Positions 4,438 to 64,000 of a stretch of DNA of 64,000 nucleotides are shown piece after piece; positions within the stretch are counted from its first letter, which is position 1; each line of letters begins with the position of its first letter. The translations under genes were made by a program, and so were the position numbers. The stretch lies in the NCBI GenBank assembly GCA_016800925.1, contig JABCPU010000150.1:62001-126000 (forward strand). The letters are read 5' to 3'. This DNA comes from Suillus spraguei (lineage: Eukaryota > Basidiomycota > Agaricomycetes > Boletales > Suillaceae). The notes under the pieces are model-generated. The model searched no databases. It was not told the DNA's origin and saw nothing but the letters and a program-made list of their open reading frames with translations.

Positions 4438-4780
4438 CAAATAATAACCCTACTCCACATGTACAACGGGTTATTTCATCTGCAAAACTGCTGAAATGAA
4501 CGCTTCTCTTGCCTATGCTAAGCGTGTTATGAACATTTACAGTAGCAGCGATGGAGGGATGCGATTGGTTGGTCACTCCGATTATCATGTTAGCACTCAG
4601 GCGAGATTTTATCAGCGAGTTGATTGTCTTATCAATCCAAAAAGCATCTAATCAAGACCAAGACCATTGCGCCTGCAGTACTGTGTTTACAAATGATGTT
4701 GCTACCAGCAAGAATGTAAGATCAATGCTAAAGAGTATACTCAGTGTCCAATGATCCATGCAACATGTTATACATCTCAT

Positions 4781-5047
4781 CAGGAAATTCGCACATTCCT
4801 TAACGTGCCCTTATGCGGACTTATTTACACTTAACTGCCTTGGTGAAATTGAATCTACTTGTCCAAAATTTCAACGTGAATGAATTCAGAAAAAAAAAGT
4901 TGAGATATATTAATATACATGTTTTATTGTATTTCGCACTCAAAAAATATAAGATATGCCAGGTGAATGATGTGAGAGAGAGCAAACAAGTTTTGAGATA
5001 AGTGAGTTAAGCTGATTAAGCACGTCAAGGAATGTGTGAATTTCCTG
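4781..5047 (-). mobile_element. MITE 'M', copy 1 (267 bp)
   Basis: The ends are near-perfect inverted repeats of about 28 bp (caggaaattc.cacattcctt and its complement) and the interior is non-coding and AT-rich. Flanking dinucleotides are AT on both sides (4,779-4,780 and 5,048-5,049). The same element occurs inverted at 31,181-31,446 with the same AT flanks and high similarity along the whole length. It interrupts the last codons of the Plavaka transposase: taking it out together with one AT joins DKE to HEMYN and reaches a stop at 4,730. Confidence 0.85.
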
Positions 5048-5548
5048 ATGCTCCTTGTCTGCATAACGGTTAAGATAAAAGTGGTCATAGTGCTCTTGAG
5101 ACGTCGCTGAAGTCAAAGAACGGTCAACCCTTTCTCCATACACTGGGACCAACTCTGCACTGTGTGTTACCTCTGTTATGGGAATGACAAACTCAGTGTG
5201 GGTTTGGGGCTGCATTGCAGGTGGATAGACCCTCTTGAGCATCCACAACTGAGTGTCCTCTAGATCCTTGGGGGTTTTTACAATATGAAAAGGTTGGACA
5301 TACAGGAGGGGGTGCGATAAGAAGCCAGGGAGCATTGCAGTTGAGTGCTGAGGTGGAGTCAGCTGGAATATGATGCAAACTTGAGCAACTGAAACTAGAC
5401 AATAGATGTTGTCAGTACATGGATGATAGGTAGTATAAACCAACTTACAACCAGGGTTATTTGCGCCTTGATCCATGTCTAAGAAAATTGCATCACAATT
5501 TCCAGATGGAAATGCATCACTTGGTGGTTCTGCTTGGACAGCTTGGCT

Positions 5549-25330: not shown

Positions 25331-25667
25331 GCTTGAAATTCATGAGATAAGTATACAAATAATAATAATAATAATATACAGGCCCTTCCGAAGGTACCTA
25401 TTTGCGAGCCCTCTAAACTTTCTCAGTCTCCGTGTCGACAGCGGCAGTTTGGAACCTATTGGGACTCGGAGGAAAAGGTTTATTGATGGCAGAAGAAGTA
25501 GCTAAGGGAAAGTGAGTGAGGGCTTATTCTTCTCGCCCTCCGAGTCCTCATCACTATGTATTAGTATGCTCATAAAACAAGCAGACCGTCAGCATGGTGG
25601 AATGATGACGATATCTAATTTGGCGGGAAAAGATCCGAGCAACCTTAAGTTAACATACTAATTATGA
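23970..25667. repeat. Segmental duplication D, copy 1, left part
   Basis: The stretch corresponds to 54,040-55,589. Landmarks include the near-identical blocks 24,555-24,770 and 54,625-54,830 and the run ending 'aagatccgagcaacc'. The duplicate continues on the other side of the 7.4-kb element at 33,061-33,450, which corresponds to 55,590-55,960. An (aat)n microsatellite sits at about 25,362-25,378 in this copy only. Confidence 0.85.
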
Positions 25668-25991
25668 TATGGAAGACAGGACTGCCGCGCTCTGTTACAT
25701 AGCGTGACCACACTCATATAAGGCAGGTGTGATGCAGGGACTCCGTGCACCTCTTTTATTGATGACTAGGCCTGCACTTGACCTTCCATAATTGTTTGTG
25801 GTTGTTTGGTAGAGGTTGGTCTTACTCAGGTCGTTGTTCAACTTTACTCTTCAGATGTCAGGTGAGGTGCTCGACGCGGCTGGAGGTCTCTGCACCTGTA
25901 CCGATGAACCTTACATTGCCCCCTCGTGAGTTTGCAAGTACTCATAACAATATGCATAGCGGTTGTTGTCATGGTGGATGTTGATGTCAAT

Positions 25992-26275
25992 GTGAGCCCC
26001 CCTTCTTTTTTTTCTTCTCTGCGCCTCGCGCTCCCAGTGCGCTGTGGCCTCAAGCACCCACGACGCTTGGTATGGCCCGTCCCTGCCCCAAGCTGAGTGA
26101 GCGTGCCTCGAGCGCCCCTGCCTGGGTGCAGCGGTGAGCCCCCCTTCTTTTTTTTCTTCTTTGCGCCTTGCACTCGCACTGTGATTTGGCCTCAAGCACC
26201 CATGACGCTTGGTATGGCCCGTCCCCACCCCAAGCTGAGTAAGCATGCTTCAAGCGCTTCTCCTCGCCATGATCA
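25992..26275. repeat. 142-bp GC-rich tandem repeat, two copies
   Basis: Two units start with 'gtgagccccccttctttttt' at 25,992 and 26,134 and share most of their length, including 'gacgcttggtatggcccgtc'. The repeat lies near the left end of the 7.4-kb element. Open frames across it are Lys- or Phe-run artefacts and not convincing genes. Confidence 0.85.
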
Positions 26276-27240
26276 AGTGTGCAGAGAAGGAGGGCGGCAT
26301 GGGAGGGCATACCTTCAAGCTCGCACTTACTGATTTTTTTTATAATCACTTGCCTCAAGGTTGCGGCTATGCAGGGCAGTCAGTCGCGTTCAGTTTTGAC
26401 CAACATCATCCCTGCGGCGTAGTTATACGCCACCATGTTGAGGGAGTCCGGGTTGTTGCAAAGCGCACAGGGCTTTCGCCTCCTCGGCGTGGGAAGCTCA
26501 ACGATCTTTTGTAAGCCATTCAGCCTCCTTTGATGATTACCCCGCTGAACGTTAGAGGCGTGCATAGCAATTGACATTTACCTGTCATGCTCGCTTTCTT
26601 GGTTTGCACTCACTTGTGCGTGGACACTGGTTACACTCCCCCTTGCAGACCTCGCGCCTGGCACGTGGCACGATACAGGACTGAAGAGTGTCTATAAGTC
26701 ACTAAGGAGGGAGGTGGGATCTATAGTGAAGGCCATGCCAAGATGGAAGGAGGACCAAGAATTTCCATCAAAAACCCTGTGCCTGGGTTATTTACACTAC
26801 AATCACCATCATCAGTGTTTCGAGTACCCGTGCTGCACCTCCTGCTTCACCCTCCCAACAAACACCCAAGAGATGCACGCCACCCCAGGCATACCCTGGC
26901 CGTCCAGCCCTTTCCGAGACTAGGCCTGCACTCCCAACATACTTCGCATCTCTGCGATTCTGGGTGTTCAAGGCACGACCCTATAACTATGCATGATGAG
27001 AGCTGGGAGTGCATCAATGTCTCTTCACGTTCGCCATAAGAAGGGCAGGACCCAGAACTAAGTCTACTCAAAATACTCCTGCTAACTTCCGAAGGCGAAA
27101 CTATTGCCGCCAATTCCGACGTCGAAGAAAGATACAAAGCCCAACAGCGGCGTCTTTGTATTAGATACGTGTAGCTTCATGTCATTCAACCGGACAATAA
27201 AAAAGTAACACAAAAAAGACAAACGCTACACTAAGTCAAG
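26276..27240 (+). other. Unassigned stretch inside the 7.4-kb element
   Basis: Several short plus-strand frames are open but none resembles a known protein. A polyadenylation-like 'aataaaaaag' lies at about 27,196, about 45 bp before the stop codon of the convergent integrase gene. A short plus-strand gene could end here, but I cannot define its exons. Confidence 0.3.
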
Positions 27241-29183
27241 TCACCAATCAAATGTTTCATCATTGTCCTCCTCATCAGAGAATTCTGCAATAACTAATGC
27301 CTCTTCCTCTATGATTGGAGCTGTAGGCAGTAAGTGTGCACCTGGTTTGTCCAACTCAGCCAGTTCATCCAGCCGGTGATGATCAGATGCATCTAATGTG
27401 CAGTAATTTAGCGCAAACTTAATTCAAACGGAGAAAACATACCAAGACCTTGTCCGCCATGAATGCCACCCATGTAGTAAGTACCATCAGTATCCTCGTG
27501 AAAAAAAAGGTTGTTTTGGTTTTCGAGGAGAGGCAAAGGCTCTTCGTCTGGGTCAGTGCCATCTGTAAGAGACCTGACAATGGCTGGCACCTGCACAGAG
27601 TGCTGCATCGAATCATACAAATCTAAGTAGATCATCCAGATGAACTGGCGAGTGATTGGAGGATGGCCTAGGTCTTCGTAACAGCCTTGAATGAAGTCGT
27701 TGAGGGGTCGGGGAACCAAATCGAAGATTGGATGGTCAGGGTCCACATAGAGATGGTGGACATAGTCTATATCGTCTTGTTTGACTGTTACCTAGAATGA
27801 TAAGCCGGTTAGTGTGACAACATGGTTCAAGTAGTGAAGTGCACCTTAAAGTCCAGGGCCCCAAAAGCTTCTGGAGACTCGTATATTAGATTAGGTACAC
27901 CATGTGGAAGCACCTAGATTGTAAGCACTAAACAAATATAAATGACTACTATCAAACAATCAAATACCTTGTTACGATCTGGCCTCTTGAGGGTGTTATT
28001 AACGCGGTCCTGATACCTATCTAACTCGCACTGAAGCCACGGAATAAAAATTCAGCGGAAGATCATGCTAAATACACTGCTGTGAGCAAAGTCGAAATGG
28101 TGGAAAGCCGAAGTCACTTACACCTGAAGGGTGTTATCACTATCATACCAGCCGTTCTCCACTCCTTCATCCAAGAGTGTTTCGAAACGGGAGTAAACCA
28201 GCACCGTAACTGAGACCAGGTGATCTCCGGTTTAACATTCTTCTTGGTCCACATCCAGCGGTGTTGTAATGTACCTTGCAGTGCCGGATCATTCATTTGA
28301 CGAAGCATAGTGTGTGCATTGGCGATCCCATAGTTTTCAGTGCCGGGATCACTCTGAGTCACTAGCGGAATATCTGTCATACCCAGGCAAGGCAACTTGA
28401 ATAAGTAACAGTGCAATAGATAATTATTAGAATGAACTTACGGCCCAGTTTCTGGATAGTCTCAAGATAGTATGTGAGAATGAGCTGGGGGTTGCAGTTA
28501 GAATGCCAGACTCGGATCCACATGATACGACCCGAGAATGGCTCCACTCCAGTATGCAATGCAAGACCGAATCGAAGCCACTTATCGTGTTGATCCACAG
28601 CGAATAGGTCGTTGATGCCAGCAGCCCAGAACCGCCTCCGCTTGAGATGGCGGGCTTTTTGCTGATGTACAAGGTCTGCTTCATAGATGGCACAGTATGC
28701 TATCACTAAGTTTCTATTTGGTAGCTAGTCAGATACAGATCAACGGCGAACAAATTAAGTACCTTGAAACGCTCATTTCTTTCTTGTGAAATAGCAAAAT
28801 CACCATTTCCTGCGCACCAGCATTTGGGTATGCCTTGCGAAGCTCGATCATGGCTTCACGGATAGATTCAATGGTGTGGCTCTGCTGGCGGGTACGCAGG
28901 AGACCCATGTCGTTGCATATCTGTCTGAACTTCGTGTATCTACTCACAAAGATCAGGGAAATAGTATCAATTAGTGGAAATTGACTCACCCTTGTCCATA
29001 ATGAGACATGTTGAAATGATTCTGCAAGTTTTCTACAATCTTCCTGTCTGTTTGACGCGCTTTCCAGTACCGAAGGATGTGAGGAGCGATTTCCTCAAGT
29101 GGTGCTGATATTGCAAGTCATGTTAGCCTTGTAATCACAATACATAGAGAGGTGGTACGGGTTTGCTTGTTTTGGTTGGGCAT
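27241..29183 (-). pseudogene. Integrase-core (rve-type) gene of the 7.4-kb element
   Basis: The start at 29,183 reads MPNQNKQT and, after an intron, LEEIAPHILRYWKARQTDRK. It continues with GLLRTRQQSHTIESIREAMI (about 28,880), then FWAAGINDLFAVDQHDKWLR (about 28,620, first catalytic D), LVTQSDPGTENYGIANAH (about 28,340, second D) and KPEITWSQL (about 28,220, probable E). This matches the integrase-core proteins widespread in Agaricomycetes. Later exons read LPHGVPNLIYESPEAFGALD, DPDHPIFDLVPRPLNDF and an acidic tail to a stop at 27,241. Two lesions are clear: a one-base loss near 28,187-28,191 (family motif FTPGFE), and TGA in place of Trp at 28,052-28,054 within FR-stop-IFIPWLQ. It would join the element ends to target DNA if intact. 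Confidence 0.8.
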
Positions 29184-29269
29184 AGTAGTTTGAATGACGG
29201 TCATGATAGCTGCACTTTAAAAGCTTCAATGGCAAGCGCTGACAGCAATAAGCAGTATAGACGCACTGA

Positions 29270-29880
29270 AAATACTAAGAGTCAGCGGAATAGGAACACC
29301 AAGATAAGAGTGGAGTCAGCGGAATAGGCGCACTGAACACCAACTTGAACACCAAGATAAGAGTTAGCTAAATGAACACCAGGTTGAATGTGACTGCACT
29401 GATAGAGTTGCAGCCTGAGGTTGAATGCGACAAATGGCTAGACTTGAAAGGTCAGTACAATTGAATAAAGTCCACCATGATAAGTCCGATGCGGAGACTT
29501 TCAGATACACTGCGGCAGATAACTTTAATATGTTGAATCTGTGTGTCGTTTTGACCATGATCATGGTGACTCACATGTTGGGCACAATGATCCGACTTGC
29601 TGAAGAATTTGCTGACTCTCAACTTAGATGCAACTCAGTCACAGCACTGCGGGATATCAATGACCCTCCACTTACTAGATGCAACTCTTCAGAGCGGTGA
29701 GTTTTAATATGTTGAATCTGTGTGCTGTTTCAACCACATGGTGAATCTGTGTGTCGTTTCGTGTCGGGCACAATGATCCGACTTGATGAAGAATTTGCTG
29801 ACTCTCGACTTAGATGCAACTCAGTACTGTGGGATATCAATGACCCTCCACTTACTAGATGCGACTCTTCAGAGCGGTGA
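29270..29880. repeat. Tandem repeats upstream of the alpha-kinase gene
   Basis: A set of short direct repeats (gagtcagcggaatagg, aacaccaagataagag) occupies about 29,278-29,380. It is followed by a 180-bp tandem duplication: the block ending 'cttcagagcggtga' at 29,700 recurs at 29,880, and both units share 'ctcttcagagcggtga' and 'atatcaatgaccctccactt'. The arrangement lies between the divergent integrase and kinase genes and could carry binding sites for a transposition protein or for regulators. Confidence 0.8.
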
Positions 29881-29892
29881 GTTTTTCCAGGC

Positions 29893-29992
29893 AGTCTTTA
29901 TATAAAGCCTGCCTCTGAAGTGTTGTAGGGCCACTCTTCCAACAATATTCCTTCAATTCCTTCAACTCATCACACAAGCACCTACTAGCATC
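29893..29992 (+). promoter_or_regulatory. TATA-type promoter of the alpha-kinase gene
   Basis: A TATA box (tttatataaagcc, about 29,897) lies about 95 bp upstream of the ATG at 29,993. The pyrimidine-rich leader (cttccaacaatattccttcaa) between them is usual for fungal promoters. Confidence 0.6.
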
Positions 29993-32873
29993 ATGGAACT
30001 GTCTCTCAATTTACCGAAGATGCTATTGCCAAGGAGGACCGTGTCTGTGGTTGACCTGCTTGCCATGGCACAATACTCAAAGGCGCTCCATGCTATTATG
30101 TTGCCACCATTGTGCCTGGCCAACCTGGTGCTTCATTTGTGAAGCATGTTACTTGTGATACTCACAGAAGCTTTCAACTTCGGTCCAACCCTCTTCAGTC
30201 CACCCTTCTTGTAAGTACACTTGAAACCCCTATATAGCTTTTGATCAATGACGCTATTAATTACATCCAGCCACACAATCACAGTTACTTCCAGATCCTC
30301 ATATCATACGCCAGACCGTGAATGCAGCACAACACAAGTGTAAGTCAAATTTCTCTATTACATATCAAACATGTCTGAATGGCGAAATTTAATAGCAACT
30401 ATCAATCCACCCCGCTAGTACCCTTCTTGTCTCAGCCCTCCAGTAGCACTGCGCACATACACCGCATTTCAGGCCCAGATATTGCTGTGCCTCTATCATG
30501 GCAACAATCGCCAGCTAGTTCCAACCCGAACATGGTATCTGGTGCCATAGGATATTCTGTGCACCATGCTCAGTATGGTCTGGAGTGTGAATGATGGGCT
30601 AAACTGGCATATGCTCCGCCCCCTGCAGAGACCATCACATTAGAGATATCAGCTGTATATGAGGGAAATTCACAGAAGAAAAGTGGGCGCGGCATCAACT
30701 TTGGGGTACGTTTGTTTTTCTTTCTATCTCTCCAGGTTGCTGTTTTTCTGACGCTCATAAATCAGAATATTTGTGAAGGAAAGAAGGACATCGACACTCG
30801 CTTGGACGCCCCTGGGCTTATATAAATTGCTTTAGATACTATTCTACTGAAAATCCTCACATTTGGAAGGGGATTTCTTTGGCGCACCAAAGAATTCGTT
30901 GTCCGGGATGCTACCTGGGTTGACCTATCTGGACATTTGCCTGCCATTCCGTACTTCTTAGCTCAGTGCTTAGTCCAATCTCGACACGGACCAAAGACGA
31001 CAACTTTCAAGACCAAGCAATTCTTACTCATGGTTGTTGTGCCTGCAGCGCAGTGGTGTGAGTATGAGGCATGGCTGGAAAAAACTGAAGAAGAAGTAAG
31101 ATTCCACTCATTCAATGTATTGTCACTCTGCTAACTCATAGATTTCTCAGAATACCTTGCATGAACAGCTCCAACGACATCAGGAAATTCACACATTCCT
31201 TGACGTGCTTAATCAGCTTAACTCACTTATCTCAAAACTTGTTTGCTCTCTCTCACATCATTCACCTGGCATATCTTATATTTTTTGAGTGCAAATACAA
31301 TAAAACATGTATATTAATATATCTCAACTTTTTTTTTCTGAATTCATTCACGTTGAAATTTTGGACAAGTAGATTCAATTTCACCAAGGCAGTTAAGTGT
31401 AAATAAGTCCGCATAAGGGCACGTTAAGGAATGTGCAAATTTCCTGATGGACACAGATCTATCAATACTGTTACTGAAGAACGAGACCCTCGAACTTCCG
31501 GCACCAACTCAGAAGACCCATGGGCCGCACAACAAGAGGATGAAGACCCTTTTGGTCTTGACTTCGAAGGACCGGATGCCTTATCTACTGTGGGACGTAA
31601 TTCCGCTGTTACTGACAGCTCAGCACATAATCTGACACGTCCATCAGCAAAGCGGGCTCATGTTCGCAGAGAGAGCGACTCCACGAATAGTACCATCTCA
31701 CCTCCTCGCAAGAAGCCAGTGCCTGGTGTATTCCACCTTCCTGACCGTAATGATTTGAAAGAGGCCTTGAAAAGTGGAGGTAGTGTAGATGCTGTGCGTG
31801 CACCTAAAGGTGAGTTTATCCTTTGTCTTGAGGCAGGCATTCTAATGAGCATCGACTTTAGTTTATGACTTCCACAACAAGGACATTCAATTCCATCCAA
31901 TTCCTGTGCGCCCACTAGCCGATATCTTGAAGACTCCTCAGTATTATTCATTCAAACCCAACATCTCAAATTTGTCTATTGGACAACTCACTATTGATGT
32001 CCCCATTCGCAGCATGATCGGGATCAGTGCCTTTGAGACAGCTCATCCAGGGTGGCTCACGCTATCTCCCCTGTCCTCCAGTGGCCTTGGGTCGCGTGCT
32101 CAGCAGGATGTTGTCGTCAAGCAGCCATTTCACAGACCTCCCCCTCACACCACTGGATCCAGCGTCCTCAAGATTTCACGTTACCCACTACCAGATGAGC
32201 ATGAAAAACTCCTCAACGAATGTAACTTGTTGTACTGGGCAAAATCTCTTCTCGACTTTACTTACAAGTACATTGATCACTGTATCGATGCCGCACCGAC
32301 TCTGCCATCTTTTCCAATCCCCCATGTGTGTTTCGTGGAAGTGGGCATTGCTTTGGCATTTTCTCGCCACTTGTCAAACACTCAGGGCACCTCCGAACAA
32401 GCTCCGATGGCAGATATTAAGGCAGGGATGTTTTCGGCAGTATATCTCCTTGAGGAGCGGGTGACGTCGGGTACTCCTAATGATCAGACATTCACAAAGT
32501 TCATCCACAACAAGGACTACGGACCTTCACTCGACGAGGACGAATACAGCTATGCTATGATGTAGCCGTCTTTCTCTTGTTTACTCAGCACATCCAGTAT
32601 GAAAAGACAGAGGGTCTGGCATTCATTTCTGATTATCAAGGCAGCACCGAGCTTCTGACTGATCCTCAGATTTTGACCCACCGGTATGTGCATTTTCAGC
32701 TACTATGATTGGCAACCTTCGTTAACCGGTGTTGCTTCTCTAGCTCGGTCAATGAAGGAATTGATCTTTTCGGTGATGGGAACATTGCAAGTGTGGTGGA
32801 CGACTTTAAGGCAAGGCACCTCTGTAACCACTACTGCAAGTGGCCAGGATTTGGATTGGAAGTATATGCTTAG
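29993..32873 (+). pseudogene. Alpha-kinase (MHCK/EF2K family) gene, broken by a MITE and point lesions
   Basis: The C-terminal exons carry the alpha-kinase signatures: LAFISDYQGSTELLTDPQIL (about 32,610-32,680), then after an intron FGDGNIASVVDDF and RHLCNHYCKWPGFGLE to the stop at 32,871-32,873. Upstream exons include a Cys-containing N terminus (CHGTILKGAPCYYVATIVPG, about 30,058), the kinase-domain part (KTPQYYSFKPNISN, AFETAHPGW, YPLPDEHEKLLNECNLLYW) and EVGIALAFSRHLSN. Lesions: TGA at 30,052-30,054, TAA at 30,823-30,825, MITE copy 2 at 31,181-31,446, and a one-base loss near 32,558 (AM then VAVFLLFTQH in another frame). A further one-base loss just after the start codon is probable. Alpha-kinases phosphorylate Ser/Thr in helical substrates. 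This copy is dead cargo of the 7.4-kb element. Confidence 0.85.
31181..31446 (+). mobile_element. MITE 'M', copy 2 (266 bp)
   Basis: This is the inverted counterpart of 4,781-5,047, with ends CAGGAAATTCACACATTCC and the complementary sequence at the right. AT flanks both sides (31,179-31,180 and 31,447-31,448). It sits in an alpha-kinase exon. Because 266 plus 2 is not a multiple of three, its loss restores the frame exactly: LHEQLQRH joins GHRSINTVTEE. Confidence 0.88.
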
Positions 32874-33060
32874 GAGAGTTACTTATTTTGACGAGTTACG
32901 ATGGACCTTGTAATCCCAGCGCTGTCAGGCGGAGACACTTTCAAGTCGGAAAGAACACTTGTAAATAACTTATTTATTCGAGATCGAAGTGCACGGAGTC
33001 CTATTGCCTTATATGTGATTGTGACATGACTAAGTGAGCGCAGCAGTCCTGTCTTCCATA

Positions 33061-33450
33061 CTATGAGCTATGAAGGCATCTCCCAGTGAGTTTTTTTCCT
33101 TCAAGTCACCATTGAGCATTTTGCACGAGTTTCGCGACAGACAGCAATGCAAGAAGTTACGACCTGTGCCTCAAACAATGACGCAATTTCGGATACAGTT
33201 CAGGAGTTATTGTGTGCTGTCTTATCACTGCATGTCCAATGCGACGAAAGTACCCACTCTGAATAGCCCACGATACTGATGAATAAATGTTCAGAATACG
33301 TCAAACGCCCCTGACAACACGCCTTGCAGCGGTTAGCACTGATTAGAATGATTGGTGTTAGTACTTGGACTTGGATATGCAGGTTTCCGCGGCGTCGCAC
33401 TGTTTCAATACCATAAGTCTCATTGGACACTTGACAGCTGGTAGGGATAT
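33061..33450. repeat. Segmental duplication D, copy 1, right part
   Basis: This corresponds to 55,590-55,960, including 'gaaggcatc', 'ccattgagcattttgcacga' and 'ttggacttggatatgcaggt'. It was contiguous with 23,970-25,667 before the 7.4-kb element inserted. Confidence 0.85.
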
Positions 33451-53866: not shown

Positions 53867-55320
53867 TCACTCCTGGAAGGCAATTGCAACCGTGCTAATT
53901 CCTTCGTCAGACTTGACCACAAGTTCAACATGATATTCTCGAATGCTAAGAATCAGACGTGGTCCTAGGACAAACATTGGTACGGGCTGAATGAGATTGA
54001 GCATGGCGAAATAAATACCAGTTCTCATGAAACTTGAGAACTTTAGTAATGATTGGGAGTGGTCAGATGCATATGACAATCACAGATCGGCGTACCAGTT
54101 TTGGACAGAATGTGCGTAGAGGCCAGATACAGCAGCAAATCTAGCATATGCAGAATGTCAGTGAACAAGACAATAACATGTAATTTACGGAACTCACACC
54201 ATAAAGTATAGCACATGACTTGTAATTTAAACCGTGAAACAGTCTCGGATGGTCGATCTCGTTGATTCATGTTGCTGCAAGTCACGGAAGTGTTTTACGA
54301 TGATCCAGGCTGCAAGACCGAAGGCAAGGACCTCCCGCATAATGGTAGGAATCCACGCCGCATCATGCAGACATGCAGTGTCTGTGTCAACGAAGACCAT
54401 GGGACACTGATTGGCGCTGGGCCCGGAAAAGACTCGCCCATGAGTCTCATATGCTTGAGGTTTATAGTGCTAATCTACAGCTAGAAGCTTACCTTTTGAA
54501 ACACCAATTCCGCCAATCCCATCATCCCTCAGGCTATCATTGAAGTTAGTGAGACTACAATGAGAAAGATGGGCATCTTTTGGATCGACCATACATGCCA
54601 TGTATCCGAGTCATCATGACGACTTGTCCGGTCAATATCAGTAAGATAACGCAGCTGAATGGCTCACCGCCCAGCATCGCATTAGCGACAATATTCGTCG
54701 CTACCAGTATAAACCAAATGATAGTGGCTGAAAATACGGGTTACTCAGAGGGTTCAATAATTCAAGAGAACGTACAGCTGATGCACTGGTTATGTCGAGC
54801 CAACAAGCTAACAGATTATAACACTCACCTCTGTTTGTGACTTAAATGAATGGAAGAGGATGGGTTGGTGAGTAGGAACTGACGAAGTTCGTCAGCCTGC
54901 AACAAGTTGAACGACAAGATATTCTATGGATCCCGTGGAAGCAATTCGTGTGACTGCCATGTGCGTGCGCCAGAGTCCTCCACATGCGTTCTGCTGTTTG
55001 CTGCACTCTCACTCTCAAGACGTCTGGTCAGAGAACGACAGTACTTCTTACATTGGCACCCGACAAATGACAAGGTCAGAGCAGTGACGGCACTTGCCGA
55101 ACTTGTCTATGAGTATGCACTTGTTGATTGTCGTCTGTTGATTCGAAACCTTCAAGTTATCCTGCGACACCTATATGGTCTCCTACACTTGTACCGTTTG
55201 CACAATCTGATTTATCAACATCGCAACCTCGTTACCACCTATAAACACCGCCATTCAATGTATCTATCATGCCGTCTCTCAAAGGTGTCGCACCACTCCG
55301 ATCCTTTTTGTTCGACATAG
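53867..55320 (-). pseudogene. DUF6533-like membrane protein gene relic, copy 2
   Basis: The minus-strand piece 54,079-53,867 gives GIYFAMLNLIQPVPMFVLGP and LILSIREYHVELVVKSDEG, the last membrane helix and cytoplasmic tail of DUF6533-like proteins. Pieces at 54,285-54,060 correspond to copy 1 (VIVLFTDILHMLDLLLYLAS), and upstream near 54,600 lies TRIHGMYGRSKRC, matching the loop after an earlier helix. Frame changes and stops separate them. It retains the C terminus that copy 1 has lost. Function of the family is unknown. Confidence 0.6.
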
Positions 55321-55960
55321 GTTTACACACTTTGAATCTCAATACTGCTGCGGGGAATATCTTGAGCGACCGAGGACTTATTCTTCTCGCCCTGCGAGTC
55401 CTCATCACTGTGTACTAGTATGGTTGTAAAACAAGCAGACCGTCAGCATGGTGGCCACACCAATCAAATTGAAATGCAGCATTTATACTCAAGCTTCAAG
55501 TGCGTTTTTGGTCGCATAGTTCAACAGGAATGATGACGATATCTAATTTGGCGGGAAAAGATCCGAGCAACCAAAAGTTGACATACTAACTATGAGACTA
55601 TGAAGGCATCTTCAAGTGAGTTTTTTTTCTCCGAGTCACCATTGAGCATTTTGCACGAGTTCCACGACAGACAGCAGTACAAGAAGTTATGACCTGTACA
55701 AACAATTTCGGATACAGTTTAGGAGTTACTGTGTGTATCTTATCGCTGCATGGCCAATGCGACGAGAGTACCCACTCTGAATAGCCCACGATACTGATGA
55801 ATAAATATTCAGAAGAAGTCAAACGCCCCTATCAACACACCTTGTGGCGGTTAGCACTGACTGGAATGATTGGTGCTAGTACTTGGACTTGGATATGCAG
55901 GTTTCCGCGGCGTTGCACTGTTTCAATACCATAAGTTTTATTGGACACTTGGCAGCTGGT
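54040..55960. repeat. Segmental duplication D, copy 2 (unoccupied)
   Basis: This copy matches 23,970-25,667 and then 33,061-33,450 without the 7.4-kb element in between. It also carries about 70 bp (about 55,460-55,530) that copy 1 lacks, and lacks about 150 bp found at 25,381-25,530. Confidence 0.85.
55590..55595. other. Empty target site of the 7.4-kb TIR element
   Basis: CTATGA occurs once here between 'gacatactaa' and 'gactatgaaggcatc'. In the occupied copy the same sites are TTATGA at 25,662-25,667 and CTATGA at 33,061-33,066, on either side of the element. This defines the element ends and the 6-bp duplication. Confidence 0.85.
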
Positions 55961-56326
55961 AGGGACCTGTGTGGACAATTAATGCTTTATTGTGGTCGCA
56001 ATATGCTCTCATTGTTCCACAGTGTACGCCTCCACAATTTCCCCCATCATGCTAGTCACCGTTGTGATTGACGGTGGCATTATTTAGTCACCATTATCTC
56101 GCTGTGGTGCTTCAAGATAATTCACAAATTGGTGCGTCCACAGCTCACCATTTAAGGTGTGTTGTGGCTCTACCAGGAAACTCTTAAATACGCTCATCGA
56201 ATTGCTGCTTCACCTCGTTGTCCTCTTCTCATTCTGATCATTGCCTTACCATCAGGCAAAGTCACTCGAAAGTTGATCACTCCTTCATCTGCTTCGCAAC
56301 CCCTTCCATACAACACGTCGGGCATA
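55961..56326 (+). promoter_or_regulatory. Upstream region of the kinase gene
   Basis: The kinase ATG is at 56,327. The frame is open upstream to about 56,159, but the extension (Leu/Ile-rich, then KVTRKLITPSSASQ) looks like translated leader. No TATA box or clear element is seen. Confidence 0.35.
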
Positions 56327-59216: not shown

Positions 59217-62200
59217 GAATCCCTCCACTCCTCCTACCTCTCCTCAGCAGGCACAGGCTGCTGCACGTCAGGCTGAGAGAAATCAGCGAAATATTGGCTC
59301 CCCTCCTGCACGTCGTCATCCTGCTCCTATAGCTCAACCATTAGACAATGCTGCTCAAATGGTAAGAATTAATTTTCTGATTTTTATGAGACATATTCTG
59401 ATGTGTTCATAGAATATTCCTCAGATCTTGGGAAATTTGAACCATGGTCCTATTCCCATGCAAAGGTTCCCTAATATGCCACGTCATGTTATCGAGCATC
59501 ATGAGGCTCAACGCAGGTGGCGTCTACAACACCAACCACCACTACCTGGGCCACCTGTTCCTGCTCCAGCCTTAGGGCCTCCGTTTGGTCAACCTATTGC
59601 TGCTCCAGCCTTAGGACCTCCCTTTGGTTATATTCCTCCACCTGCTGCACTTCAGAATGAGTATGAACGTTGTATGGCAAATGTTGCTGCAGCCACAATG
59701 AATAGTCATGAAGCACGCCGTGCTGCAAGGAGAAGGCGTAATAATCCCCAACAACAACCTGCACCTCCTGCCCCTGCCCCTGCCCCTGCCCCTGCCCCTG
59801 CCCCTGCCCCTGGTCCTCAGAATAACTTTGCAGCCTTTCAGTTGCTGCAGCAACAAGCTGCACAGGGACATAATATACAGCAGCAGCAGCTAGCCGAAAT
59901 AATTGCTAGGCATGCTCAGGATTATCGCCGTGAACAGCAGCAGGAAGAGGAAGCTGAACAGATGAATAGACAGAACTATGGTCAATACATGCATGGTCCT
60001 ATTCACTATGAGGGTGCAGTTGGTCCTCACAATTTCAACAATCCCCAACAATACTTTGCACACCATCCTGCACCACCTATGGCTGCACCACCTCAACCTG
60101 ATTATCAACAATTCAATGTTCAGTTTCAACATCATTTCCAGCACCAGGATAGACAGGCACAGGAGGCATTACACCAACAACAAATCCAGCAGCAGCAGCA
60201 GGACAGACAAGCACAGAATATGTTATATCAACAGCAGATACAGCAGCAGCAGCAGGATAGACAAGCACAGGATGTAATACATCAACAACAAATCCAGCAG
60301 CAATTGCAGGAGGAGGAAGTGAGACAAGAACAAGATGTTCAACGAGCAGGTCAACAGGAAGAGGAGCATTTCAATAGTCAAACTCAGGATCGTCAGCGAG
60401 CAGGTCAACAGGAGGAGGCCCGTCATAACCGCGAGGGACAGAGAGTTCTTGAGCAGCAGGAGCGTCTTGAGGAGGCACTACGTGAATATAATGATCCAAT
60501 ATCTCAAGAGCAACATGCAGATGATGAAGAGAGAAGGAGAATCCAACAGCAGGAACAACACCAGGAGCATGAAGAAGAGGACAACCAGCATATCAATCAG
60601 GTCATTCCTATTCCTGATGGAGCTCAACCATATACAGAACCAGCCAACCGTCACACTCTTGGTCCCCTCAATGTGGAGTGCCCCAAATGTCATGCACTTC
60701 ACTTTATATGTGAAAGACTCTCCAACTCCTCTCTGCTAAACCCTCGCTTTGGTATGTGCTGCTTGCAGGGCCAAGTCAGCCTTCCCCCATTTCCAGCATG
60801 GCCACCTGAGCTGGAGCAGGCATATAGAGACAGAACATTTGTGTCAAAAATTCGCCAATACAACAGTGCTCTTGCATTTACCTCTGTTGGTGTCAACATT
60901 GAGGATCATGCTGTTCAAAGATCTGGCCCAAATGCTTTTCGTATCCATGGCTCTCTCCATCACCTCATGGGCAGTCTTCTACCTCCAGAGGGTGTCCAGC
61001 CTTCATATGCACAACTTTATATATATGACTCTGAAGAAGCCACCAACATCCGCACCACCCGTCCTGGAAATGAAGGTCTTGATCGTCAGATTCTCAGAGA
61101 TCTGCATGACATGTTGCATCGAAAACACCCCTATGCTGCTGTCTACAAGCAAGCCTATCAAATCATGCAAGAGAAGCCTCCAGAGGAGCAGACAGATGTT
61201 TCTGTGCGTATTCACTTCCTGCCAGGCACAGATGGTCGAAGATACAACCTTCCCACTGCCAATGAAATTGCTGCAGCTCTTCCTGGAGATGGATCTGAGG
61301 AGGTGTCTCATGAAAGGGACATCATTTTATATTATCAAAATGGTCGACTTAGGCGCATCAGTCAACTCAACCATGCATATGCCTGTCTTCATTATGTCCT
61401 TCTCTTTCCTAATGGAGAGGATGGCTGGGACCTCTACATTGATATGATCATTCCTCAGGGTGGACGTGCACGTGCCAAAAAAGTGACTCAGCTGCTGTAT
61501 TATGCCTTTCGTCTTCATCCCCGTCCAGCTCGCATTGACCACAACAACATCTTTCGTGGTGGAAGGCTGTTCCAGCAGTATGTTGTTGATGCTTGGGCAT
61601 CCATTGAGCAGAGCAGACTCAACTGGATAAGAAACAACCAGAAGAAGATCAGGGCTGACTGCTACCAAGGCCTCACAGACAATATTCTCAATGATGGAGT
61701 AGGCAATTTGGCTGAGACAGGTCGTGCTATAATCCTTCCCTCCTCTCATTCTGGAAGCCCTCGCTATATGCAGCAGCTACTGCAGGACTCCTTGGCCATC
61801 TGCCGTGCCTGCAAGAAACCTGATCTCTTCCTGACAATGACTGCCAATGGGAACTGGCCTGAGATTACTGAGAATCTCCTTCCAGGTAAAGTGACATACT
61901 GATGCATCATTATGACTTGATTCTGACAAGTTTTCTAATGTAGGTCAAACTGCTGTGGACCGTCCAGACTTGGTGGCTCGCGTATTCTATCAAAAGCAGC
62001 AGGCTCTGCTGAAGAAGGTTCGCAATGGCTACTATGGCAAGGTTGCAGGATTGGTGTACACCATTGAATATCAAAAGCGTGGTCTGCCTCACATGCACCT
62101 TCTCATCTTCCTGGATCCAGACCACAAGATTCGTACTGTGGAACAAATAGACTCCTTCATCTCTGCCCAGATCCCTGACAGAAATGTCCATCCCCAACTC

Positions 62201-64000
62201 TATGAGGCTGTGGAGAAATACATGCTTCATGGCCCCTGCTCTCCAGAACGTTGCTTGGAGAATGGACGTTGCAAAAAGCACTTTCCAAAGTCTTTCTGTG
62301 CCCAGACATTGATGAAGGAGGATGGCTATCCAGAGTATGCAAGACCTGACAATGGTCGCACTGTCCAGAAGAATGACACTGTCTTCACCAACAAAGATGT
62401 TGTTCCTCACCCTCCACAACTCCTGGTGGAATTCAACTGCCACATCAATCTTGAAGTCTGTGCTTCCATCAAGTCTGTGAAATACATCCACAAGTACATC
62501 TACAAGGGAAATGACCGTGCCACTTTGGAGATGCCAGGACCAGTGGATGAGGTCAAAACCTACCTTGACTCCAGATACATCAGCTCTACTGAGGCTGCAT
62601 GGCACATCTTTGAGTTTGGAATGCACCTTGAATGGCCCTCTGTCTACCGTCTGCCAGTCCACCTTCCAAATGAACACATGGTGTTTTATGATCCTGAGGA
62701 TGATGCCCAGGATGTTCTTGAGCGTGCAGCAACCAAGGAGACTTGCCTTACTGGATGGTTCAAAGCCAATGCCAACAATATCTTGGTGGCAGCTGGAGCC
62801 CATGATCACCTCTACCAGGACTTCCCCTCAAAATTCGTATGGAACAAGACCGCATGGAAGGTACGACAACGTGGAATGGCCATTGGAAGGATGTACTCTG
62901 CTGCACCTGGATCTGGAGAGCGCTTCTACCTGAGATTGCTTCTGACTGTAGTAAAAGGTATGATGCTCATGTCAATTTTTATCAATCAAACTCACCATGT
63001 ATTCAAGGGGCCACCTCCTATGAGAACCTTCGAACAGTTGATGGTGTTTTATATGACACTTTCAAGGAGGCATGTCGACGTAGGGGTCTACTTGAGGATG
63101 ACAATGAATGGATCCAGTGCTTGCAGGATGCCTCTCACATGAGCACTGGACATGGCATGCGCAATCTCTTTGCCATCATCCTCATCCACTGTAACCCTAC
63201 AGACCCCAGTGATCTTTGGAACCAATTCAAGGACAATCTCTGCGATGATCTGCGTCACCACCTGTCTCATGCCCCATTCAACATTCCTAACCCCACAAAT
63301 GAAGAGGTCTATGACTATGGTCTCTATCTCATTGATGGAAAACTTCGCAAAAATGGAAAGTCTTTGCAAGTGATTCCTCAGATGCCTACACCTCAAATGG
63401 CAGCAAGATGGGGGGTCATGCAGGGAAATCAGCTCATTGCTGAGCAGCTCCAGTATAACCAGGAGGAGCTCCAGCAGATGGTGGATCCAGGAGTGCTTTC
63501 TCTCAATCAGGAGCAGAGGACAGTCTTTGATGCAGTGGTCAATGATGCCATGCAAAGAAATGAGCAGACACCTGGACATGCATTTTTGTCCACAGTGCAG
63601 GTGGATGTGGCAAGACATATCTCTGCAAGCTCATTGCCTCAAAACTCCGTGCTGAAGGCAAGATTGTCCTGTGTGTGGCTTCCTCTGGAATTGCTTCTCT
63701 CCTCCTGCCAGGTGGACGTACAGCTCATTCGCGATTCAAGATTCCAATCCCCATTAATGAGGACAGTTCCTGCAACATCAAGAAAGGAGATGTTGTGCAT
63801 GAGCTTCTGAAGGCCACCTCCCTCATCATCTGTGATGAAATTCCAATGCTACACCGTCACAATCTGGAATGCCTTGACCGCTCATTGCGTGACCTTCTCA
63901 ATGTTGATGCTGATTTTGGAGGATTATCCATACTCTTTGGAGGAGACTTCAGACAGACTCTACCAGTGGTGGCTCATGGATCCAGAGAGCAGATAGTGGG
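59162..64000 (+). CDS. Helitron Rep-helicase transposase, 3'-partial, with one frameshift
   Basis: Exons are 59,162-59,163, 59,217-59,361, 59,413-61,885, 61,944-62,957 and 63,008 onward, all joined by GT-AG introns of 50-58 bp. Residues up to about 440 are low-complexity: Pro/Ala repeats (59,760-59,815) and Gln-rich coiled segments (60,150-60,560). A zinc-binding segment follows (CPKCHALHFICERL, FGMCCLQGQV), then the Rep domain: GLPHMHLLIFL with the HUH pair (about 62,085), HGPCSPERCLENGRC, and the tyrosine motif VKYIHKYIYKG (about 62,480). The Pif1 helicase starts with LNQEQRTVFD. At the T5 run 63,583-63,587 one base is missing, so Walker A (GGCGKT, 63,600-63,617) and all later motifs (IICDEIPM, FGGDFRQTLPVV) lie in another frame. 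If not a sequencing error, the copy cannot make a full protein. Confidence 0.88.

What the first reader, a model, noticed from the sequence alone, without database searches (positions are those of the whole stretch)
25668..33060. A 7.4-kb terminal-inverted-repeat element pairing an integrase-core gene with an alpha-kinase gene, with its empty site in the same window
The ends, the 6-bp duplication and the unoccupied duplicate (55,590-55,595) together define a complete element. Its two genes are an rve-type integrase and an MHCK/EF2K-family alpha-kinase, arranged divergently from a repeat-rich centre. Integrase-type enzymes giving 5-6 bp duplications are known, but I know of no named transposon that combines this integrase with an alpha-kinase. 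The kinase may be cargo or part of the mobility system, for instance acting on host chromatin or the integrase itself.
Basis: partly seen in the sequence, partly recalled or inferred. Interest (0 to 1): 0.85.

Follow-up and report, generated by a model that had tools for sequence, protein, structure and literature searches.

The report
Mushroom transposon with conserved kinase partner
A decayed 7.4-kb jumping gene in a bolete-type mushroom carries both its own cut-and-paste enzyme and an alpha-kinase; the pairing is already published for IS3EU transposons of other fungi, but what the kinase does for the transposon is an open and testable question.

Summary
Window 25668-33060 is a complete DNA transposon: inverted ends (27 of 30 pairs), a 6-bp target duplication (5 of 6 still matching), an unoccupied duplicate at 55590-55595. 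It holds an integrase-like DDE transposase (minus strand) and an alpha-kinase (plus strand), divergent from a repeat-rich centre. Both genes are broken here; a 272-bp MITE sits in a kinase exon. A second insertion in the genome has a perfect 6-bp duplication.

The pairing has precedent. Ends, duplication length and divergent transposase/alpha-kinase layout match Kojima's (2025) IS3EU transposons of rusts and a truffle, except that no TET/JBP gene was found here. So: a TET-less IS3EU-type element in a Suillus (probably S. spraguei).

The kinase is not a one-off passenger. Of 52 transposase loci in this genome 46 have a kinase within 15 kb, 45 of them divergent; a second family has at least 13 full-length copies with both genes. 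Between subfamilies the kinase protein changes slowly (pN 0.21-0.36) while synonymous sites are saturated. I read it as a maintained helper of the element, substrate unknown. Interest is moderate: known kind, open function.

The parts
25668..25697 (+). left terminal inverted repeat, begins TATGG
   Evidence: (27 of 30 paired with the right arm)
33031..33060 (-). right terminal inverted repeat, ends CCATA
25662..25667 (.). left target duplication TTATGA
33061..33066 (.). right target duplication CTATGA (5 of 6 as left)
55590..55595 (.). the same site without the element, CTATGA, in a paralogous copy of the flanks
27241..29183 (-). DDE transposase gene (rva_4 integrase core), several introns, about 29183 to 27241; a frame break downstream of the third catalytic residue; candidate triad D (VDQHDKW), D (TQSDPGTENY), E (KPEITW)
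   Evidence: frames; split match; conservation in relatives; fold of a relative; limits set by eye
29524..29885 (.). two direct repeats of about 182 nt (83%) between the genes
29993..32873 (+). alpha-kinase gene with introns, start and stop by eye; interrupted by a MITE and by a 5-bp insertion near 32549 relative to the C344 copy
31178..31449 (.). 272-bp MITE inside a kinase exon, ends CATCAGG, 2-bp duplication GA; second copy at 4778-5050 (99.3%)
25992..26257 (.). two direct repeats of 124 nt (88%) in the left subterminal part

Best explanation
An old, inactive copy of a cut-and-paste DNA transposon of the IS3EU type. A DDE transposase related in fold to bacterial IS21/Tn7 transposases and retroviral integrases bound the TATGG... 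ends, cut the element out and joined it to a 6-bp staggered target (shown: ends, duplications, empty site, predicted fold, conserved acidic residues; inferred: the reaction). The divergent alpha-kinase is the element's own second gene. It is kept with the transposase across diverged subfamilies under purifying selection and most likely acts as a helper protein that phosphorylates a host or element protein to help the element be expressed or transposed (shown: linkage, orientation, conserved kinase motifs, slow protein change; inferred: helper role; unknown: substrate).
For: Structure and TSD. Second family with the same layout: 8 of 8 fetched loci with both ends seen have exact 6-bp duplications (7 distinct sites, L026 and L037 sharing one). 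Of 23 end pairs among the exact matches listed (a capped list), 13 are 5,761-5,940 bp apart and all 13 enclose both exons searched, divergent. Linkage: 46 of 52 transposase loci have a kinase within 15 kb, 45 divergent and 1 not; 6 have none. Kinase: PF02816, profile match to TRPM7/eEF2K/MHCK A, predicted fold nearest eEF2K and ALPK1, near-invariant VK(R)PF lysine and ISDYQG; FGxGN in 9 of the 11 rows of A1 that reach it (FSxGN in the other 2, by eye). Transposase: rva_4, fold nearest IstA, TnsB, retroviral integrases, D146, D205, E246 at least 90% conserved in 44 sequences. Selection: in 20 of 20 between-subfamily pairs (window and C344, one family, each counted) kinase pN is 0.21-0.36 against pS 0.74-0.88. 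Precedent: Kojima 2025.
Against: Both genes of the window copy are broken, and the other complete copy (C344) also has a broken transposase frame, so no activity can be claimed for this family. Six of 52 transposase loci show no kinase (C366, C440, C307, C322, C582, C571), and other rva_4 loci in the genome have none nearby. The 52 loci are not all independent: the assembly holds duplicate or allelic contigs, and 25 are one young family. A few pairs stand 7-12 kb apart. Identities of the two genes correlate only weakly (Spearman 0.54, 15 dependent pairs, p 0.04). No expression or biochemical data. The transposase could not be compared with Repbase IS3EU proteins, which are not held here. Foldseek TM-scores of the transposase model are low (query-normalised 0.13-0.28 for the first 20 rows), and its sequence profile finds nothing in the PDB.
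Confidence: 0.85

Rival explanations
1. The kinase counters host silencing: the elements are targets of CpG methylation, and the kinase phosphorylates a chromatin or methylation factor, a role parallel to the one proposed for the TET/JBP gene of related elements.
For: Copies decay mostly at CpG: window against C344, C to T (either strand) at 143 of 1036 CpG cytosines, against 25 of 2235 CA, 6 of 1464 CC, 2 of 1888 CT. Kojima's TET+ IS3EU carry both genes, and the paper proposes escape from methylation for TET.
Against: No substrate or localisation is known; CpG decay suggests that the copies are methylated, not that the kinase opposes it. The passages and sections that I read give no function for the kinase.
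Confidence: 0.35
2. The kinase acts directly on the transposase (activation, autoregulation, or control by cell cycle).
For: Frequent pairing and divergent layout around one shared centre.
Against: No evidence for a phosphorylation site or contact; other IS3-like transposases work without a kinase (recalled).
Confidence: 0.25
3. The kinase is cargo that serves the host, captured once and carried along.
For: Rust fungi have large alpha-kinase families (79 and 39 PF02816 genes in two columns of the table in PMC4469406, passages only), which could be read as a host function.
Against: 46 of 54 kinase loci found in this genome lie beside a transposase; of the 8 other entries three are short deletion derivatives with both element ends and one lies beside an element end; the remaining four (C361, C860, two on C912) were not examined. 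Linkage is kept across diverged subfamilies.
Confidence: 0.12
4. Chance neighbourhood or composite of two unrelated elements.
For: None beyond the broken genes of the window copy.
Against: Two families with different ends, one with many young copies, have the same gene pair and layout inside the same ends.
Confidence: 0.01

Closest known systems
IS3EU DNA transposons with TET/JBP and alpha-kinase genes (rusts; one family in Tuber indicum), Kojima 2025, PMC12730594
   Same: 6-bp TSD; ends TAYGG..CCRTA; transposase and alpha-kinase in opposite orientations
   Different: No TET/JBP gene was found between the two genes: of the 150 scored TET_JBP matches of the genome (of 197 candidates), none is inside the window (the one on its contig is 39 kb from the element), and the five on contigs with a linked pair all lie outside the pair. 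Host is an agaricomycete. The TIR is 30 bp, 27 paired, not longer than 30.
IS3EU/GingerRoot superfamily in general, PMC10045372 (passages read)
   Same: TA..TA ends, usually 6-bp TSD, IS3/IS481-like DDD/E transposase
   Different: No alpha-kinase is mentioned (0 occurrences of 'kinase' in the main text)
Styx element of Zymoseptoria, PMC10853768 (passages read)
   Same: Fungal element with an IS3EU-like transposase plus further genes
   Different: The passages read do not name an alpha-kinase in the element
Alpha-kinases eEF2K, TRPM7 and MHCK A
   Same: Sequence profile; predicted fold nearest eEF2K and ALPK1
   Different: 16-17% identity in the Foldseek alignments to eEF2K; encoded by a transposon

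Membership tests
IS3EU | TA..TA termini (TAYGG..CCRTA in the TET+ rust families) | tested here: met
   TATGG..CCATA in window, C344 and family 2
IS3EU | 6-bp target site duplication | tested here: met
   C344 6/6; window 5/6; family 2 8 of 8 fetched loci with both ends
IS3EU (TET+ rust families) | TIR longer than 30 bp | tested here: inconclusive
   ungapped arm 30 nt, 27 paired; a further 16-nt pair (94%) lies inward at 25738-25753 / 32986-33001
IS3EU | integrase-like DDD/E transposase | tested here: met
   PF24764 45.8 bits for the family-2 relative; fold nearest IstA/TnsB/integrases; D, D, E conserved
IS3EU | transposase groups with IS3EU/GingerRoot in a tree | not testable with these tools
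   Repbase proteins are not held
IS3EU (TET+ families) | alpha-kinase gene opposite to the transposase | tested here: met
   window divergent; genome-wide 45 of 46 linked pairs divergent
IS3EU (TET+ families) | TET/JBP gene between the two | tested here: not met
   so it is not filed as a TET+ IS3EU, only as IS3EU-type
Alpha-kinase (PF02816) | profile match above cut-off and catalytic/zinc motifs | tested here: met
   for sister copies and relatives; the window's own pieces alone gave no hit
Ginger1/Ginger2/Polinton | 4-bp TSD (Ginger) or protein-primed polymerase and large size (Polinton), recalled | tested here: not met
   6-bp TSD and 7.4 kb with two recognised genes

The most novel reading that the evidence does not exclude
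The alpha-kinase, not the TET/JBP gene, is the ancestral and near-obligate partner of fungal IS3EU transposases: a transposon-encoded protein kinase that the element needs, either to act on its transposase or to keep host silencing off. That would be a eukaryotic cut-and-paste transposon whose mobility depends on its own protein kinase.
Probability: 0.4. Interest if true: 0.7.

Novelty: new member of a known kind. Interest (0 to 1): 0.42.

Why it matters
Transposons that carry their own regulatory enzyme are useful test cases of how selfish DNA handles its host. Here the pairing is already published for TET-bearing relatives, but this genome shows it without TET, in many subfamilies, and in a young multicopy family: the searched transposase exon is open in 25 of 25 copies, the searched kinase exon is open over its whole length in 20 copies and nearly so in one more. 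That gives a natural system for asking what a transposon gains from a protein kinase. It also suggests a source for some of the alpha-kinase gene families counted in basidiomycete genomes: here 46 of the 54 alpha-kinase loci found lie beside a transposase.

Tried and rejected
Kinase as chance neighbour: rejected by the genome-wide linkage count. Rarity of the element: rejected, two families with complete copies plus many diverged loci. Relatives in viral contigs: one scan with alignment A1 found 264 pattern matches, none confirmed. Transposase against PDB by sequence profile: 0 matches; by fold, IstA/TnsB/integrases. Kinase exon of C344 against PDB by single sequence: 0; with a relative and with a profile, hits. 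Tree congruence of the two genes: only identities of 6 subfamilies (15 pairs) were compared; inconclusive. A possible zinc finger at the kinase N-terminus: below cut-off (14.4 bits against 21.3), not used. Four further open frames inside the element (26239-26511, 26549-26920, 26698-27036, 29425-29697): no Pfam match above cut-off; one weak one (16.8 bits, cut-off 25) not used. Boundaries of kinase-less rva_4 loci: for two of them the inverted repeats of the 3.6/3.3-kb pieces were short and gave no clear element ends. Papers: searches; the pairing of alpha-kinase and transposon was found only in PMC12730594; subscription papers, preprints and Repbase are not held, and listed papers other than PMC12730594, PMC10045372, PMC10853768 and PMC4469406 (passages of the last three) were seen as listings only.

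Cross-species hint, kept as weak: among 59 named kinase entries and 81 named transposase entries typed into, 9 contig lengths within a species are shared, against 1.4-2.2 expected for random placement in genomes of 40-60 Mb. (One search was a first version with one wrong and one missing entry; same 9.) Metagenome rows, and transposase rows from species without a named kinase row, were left out; only the best 120 rows were visible. Same contig is not same element.
Full report
What is there. The 7,393-bp interval 25668-33060 begins TATGGAAGACAGGACTGC and ends with its reverse complement; the 30-nt arms pair at 27 positions. The flanking hexamers are TTATGA and CTATGA. The unoccupied counterpart CTATGA at 55590-55595 lies in a second copy of the flanks 30 kb away: 24024-25310 matches 54049-55373 at 90% and 33060-33447 matches 55589-55965 at 88%.

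Other copies in the same genome. The window's assembly (86.2 Mb, 1,256 contigs) holds 11 matches to the first 18 bases of the ends with at most 2 mismatches, against 1 for the reversed control pattern. Contig C865 looks like the allele or a duplicate contig of the window locus (same left flank; it stops inside the element). Contig C344 holds an independent insertion of 7,069 bp with the same limits and a perfect duplication GCTCCG. C344 lacks the 272-bp piece at 31178-31449; that piece is a MITE with ends CATCAGG and a second copy at 4778-5050, and it sits in a kinase exon (by eye). Relative to C344 the window kinase also has a 5-bp insertion near 32549, and the window transposase match is split by a frame break. 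The C344 transposase frame is broken elsewhere (ORF list, by eye). Neither complete copy looks able to make both proteins.

The proteins. The minus-strand gene matches Pfam rva_4, Integrase core domain: weakly in the window exon (19.5 bits, cut-off 26), clearly when the exons of the sister family are spliced (45.8 bits). An AlphaFold2 model of a Suillus relative (P0208, mean pLDDT 76) finds IstA of IS21 first in the PDB, and TnsB and retroviral integrases among the next rows, with low TM-scores. In 44 aligned relatives D146, D205 and E246 of the first sequence are at least 90% conserved; I take them as the DDE triad, with 40 residues between the second and third (inference). The plus-strand gene is an alpha-kinase: PF02816 at 37.8 bits for the C344 exon, profile E-values of 4e-8 (TRPM7), 1e-6 (eEF2K) and 2e-5 (MHCK A) in the PDB, and the model of the relative P0007 (mean pLDDT 78) matches eEF2K and ALPK1. 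The ISDYQG motif and the lysine of VKRPF are near-invariant; the FGxGN loop is present in 9 of the 11 rows of alignment A1 that reach it.

A second family shows the design in better order. Of the 29 PF02816 hits of the genome, 25 belong to another family with ends TATGGAAAGCCRGAGCACCGTG (by their places). In the 8 fetched loci with both ends visible the 6-bp duplications are exact in 8 of 8 (7 distinct sites). The other 10 are 1.3 to 5.1 kb long. Fetched copies are 96.7-100% identical over the shared parts, mostly above 99%, so this family moved recently. The four kinds of internal-deletion derivatives that were fetched (1.35, 3.37, 4.83 and 5.13 kb) keep both ends.

How general is the pairing here? 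One transposase exon and one kinase exon of family 2 were searched against the whole genome (54 and 67 matches) and merged into 52 transposase and 54 kinase loci. Forty-six transposase loci have a kinase within 15 kb, and 45 of the 46 pairs are divergent: 23 of 25 loci in family 2 and 22 of 27 others, down to about 50% transposase identity. One pair (C425) is in another orientation and degenerate. Six loci have no kinase hit: C366, C440, C307, C322, C582, C571. The loci are not all independent, since the assembly contains duplicate or allelic contigs, and a few pairs stand 7-12 kb apart. Of the 8 kinase entries without a transposase, three are the 1.35-kb derivatives (L030-L032), one lies beside an element end (C644), and the rest (C361, C860 and two on C912) were not followed. 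Counter-evidence: Pfam rva_4 itself gave 16 matches, many in loci (C310, C317, C77, C469:252 kb, C769, C603, C55) with no kinase hit nearby; I could not bound these elements, so kinase-less relatives may exist.

Selection. Among six subfamilies plus the window copy, 20 of 20 between-subfamily comparisons of the kinase exon have pS 0.74-0.88 and pN 0.21-0.36; the transposase exon behaves alike with lower pN in each pair. The comparison is anchored on family 2, includes copies with frame breaks, and synonymous sites are saturated, so no exact ratio is given. Window against C344, both decaying, gives dN/dS 0.70 for the kinase and 0.44 for the transposase. I conclude that the kinase was kept as a protein while the lineages were active. 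Identities of the two genes correlate at 0.54 (15 dependent pairs), which does not decide congruence.

Decay. Window and C344 differ at 186 of 7,033 aligned sites, 176 of them transitions. 147 lie at CpG, although only 9.4% of sites are CpG in either copy; C-to-T changes hit 143 of 1,036 CpG cytosines and 33 of 5,587 others, without a TCG preference. This is the pattern expected of methylated CpG; methylation itself was not measured.

Host and spread. Contigs C438 and C869 have exactly the lengths (95,351 and 230,964) of the contigs that carry two kinase proteins named Suillus spraguei; the host is therefore very probably Suillus spraguei, Boletales. Named relatives of the kinase are from Suillus, Pisolithus, Melanogaster, Paxillus, Boletus and Rhizopogon (156 hits, best 120 listed). 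Those of the transposase also reach Mycena, Lyophyllum, Hypsizygus, Agrocybe and Laccaria (492 hits, best 120 listed).

What is known. Kojima 2025 (PMC12730594; abstract and outline, passages, sections 3.1.3 and 4.2 read) reports that TET+ IS3EU transposons of seven rust species have 6-bp TSDs, TIRs longer than 30 bp and ends TAYGG..CCRTA, and that all TET+ IS3EU families have the TET/JBP gene between transposase and alpha-kinase, the latter two in opposite orientations. The IS481EU paper (PMC10045372, passages) gives IS3EU TA..TA ends and usually 6-bp TSDs, with 45 families in Repbase in 2022. The element here meets these features except the TET gene and, strictly, the stated TIR length. Of the 150 scored TET_JBP matches (197 candidates, so not exhaustive), five lie on contigs with a linked transposase-kinase pair, and all five lie outside the pair. 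I therefore file it as IS3EU-type, not as TET+ IS3EU, and leave the transposase tree as the open membership test. Whether Repbase already holds TET-less IS3EU families with a kinase could not be checked.

Mechanism. Shown: ends, duplications, empty site, gene pair, linkage, motif conservation, slow protein change. Inferred: cut-and-paste transposition with a 6-bp stagger by the DDE transposase; the kinase as a helper protein expressed from the shared centre. Which step it helps is unknown. Two readings stay open: countering CpG-methylation silencing, and acting on the transposase. That the kinase is kept without TET here and together with TET in rusts makes the kinase the more constant partner, which is the most novel reading that the data allow.

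Noticed in passing
window 4778-5050 and 31178-31449: A 272/273-bp MITE with ends CATCAGG and 2-bp duplications (CT, GA; by eye), the two copies 99.3% identical in opposite orientation.
   Followed up: partly
L024-L032, L034, L035, L037, L038 (G000 contigs C402, C991, C269, C1158, C544, C602, C314, C425, C339, C817, C787, C549): A recently active IS3EU-type family with at least 13 full-length copies and graded internal-deletion derivatives sharing both ends.
   Followed up: partly
G000, e.g. C292:114104-120025 and C302:24987-30932: A third end variant, TATGGAAAGCCAGACCACCGTG, is common: the family-2 end pattern has 358 matches within 2 mismatches, and most of the listed one-mismatch places are this variant (capped list); C292 and C302 hold both genes.
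   Followed up: partly
window element against L009: Copy decay mostly by CpG transitions, without the TCG preference that PMC12730594 gives for Pucciniomycotina.
   Followed up: yes
G000 contigs C310, C317, C77, C769, C603, C55: Stronger rva_4 Pfam matches in loci with no alpha-kinase hit: possibly a kinase-less sister lineage.
   Followed up: no
G000, whole genome: 150 scored TET_JBP matches over the cut-off (of 197 candidates), many with identical scores: TET genes are also a multicopy, possibly transposon-borne family here.
   Followed up: no
window 59413-63810: Long open frames that by eye resemble the Rep/helicase of a Helitron; not tested with a profile.
   Followed up: no
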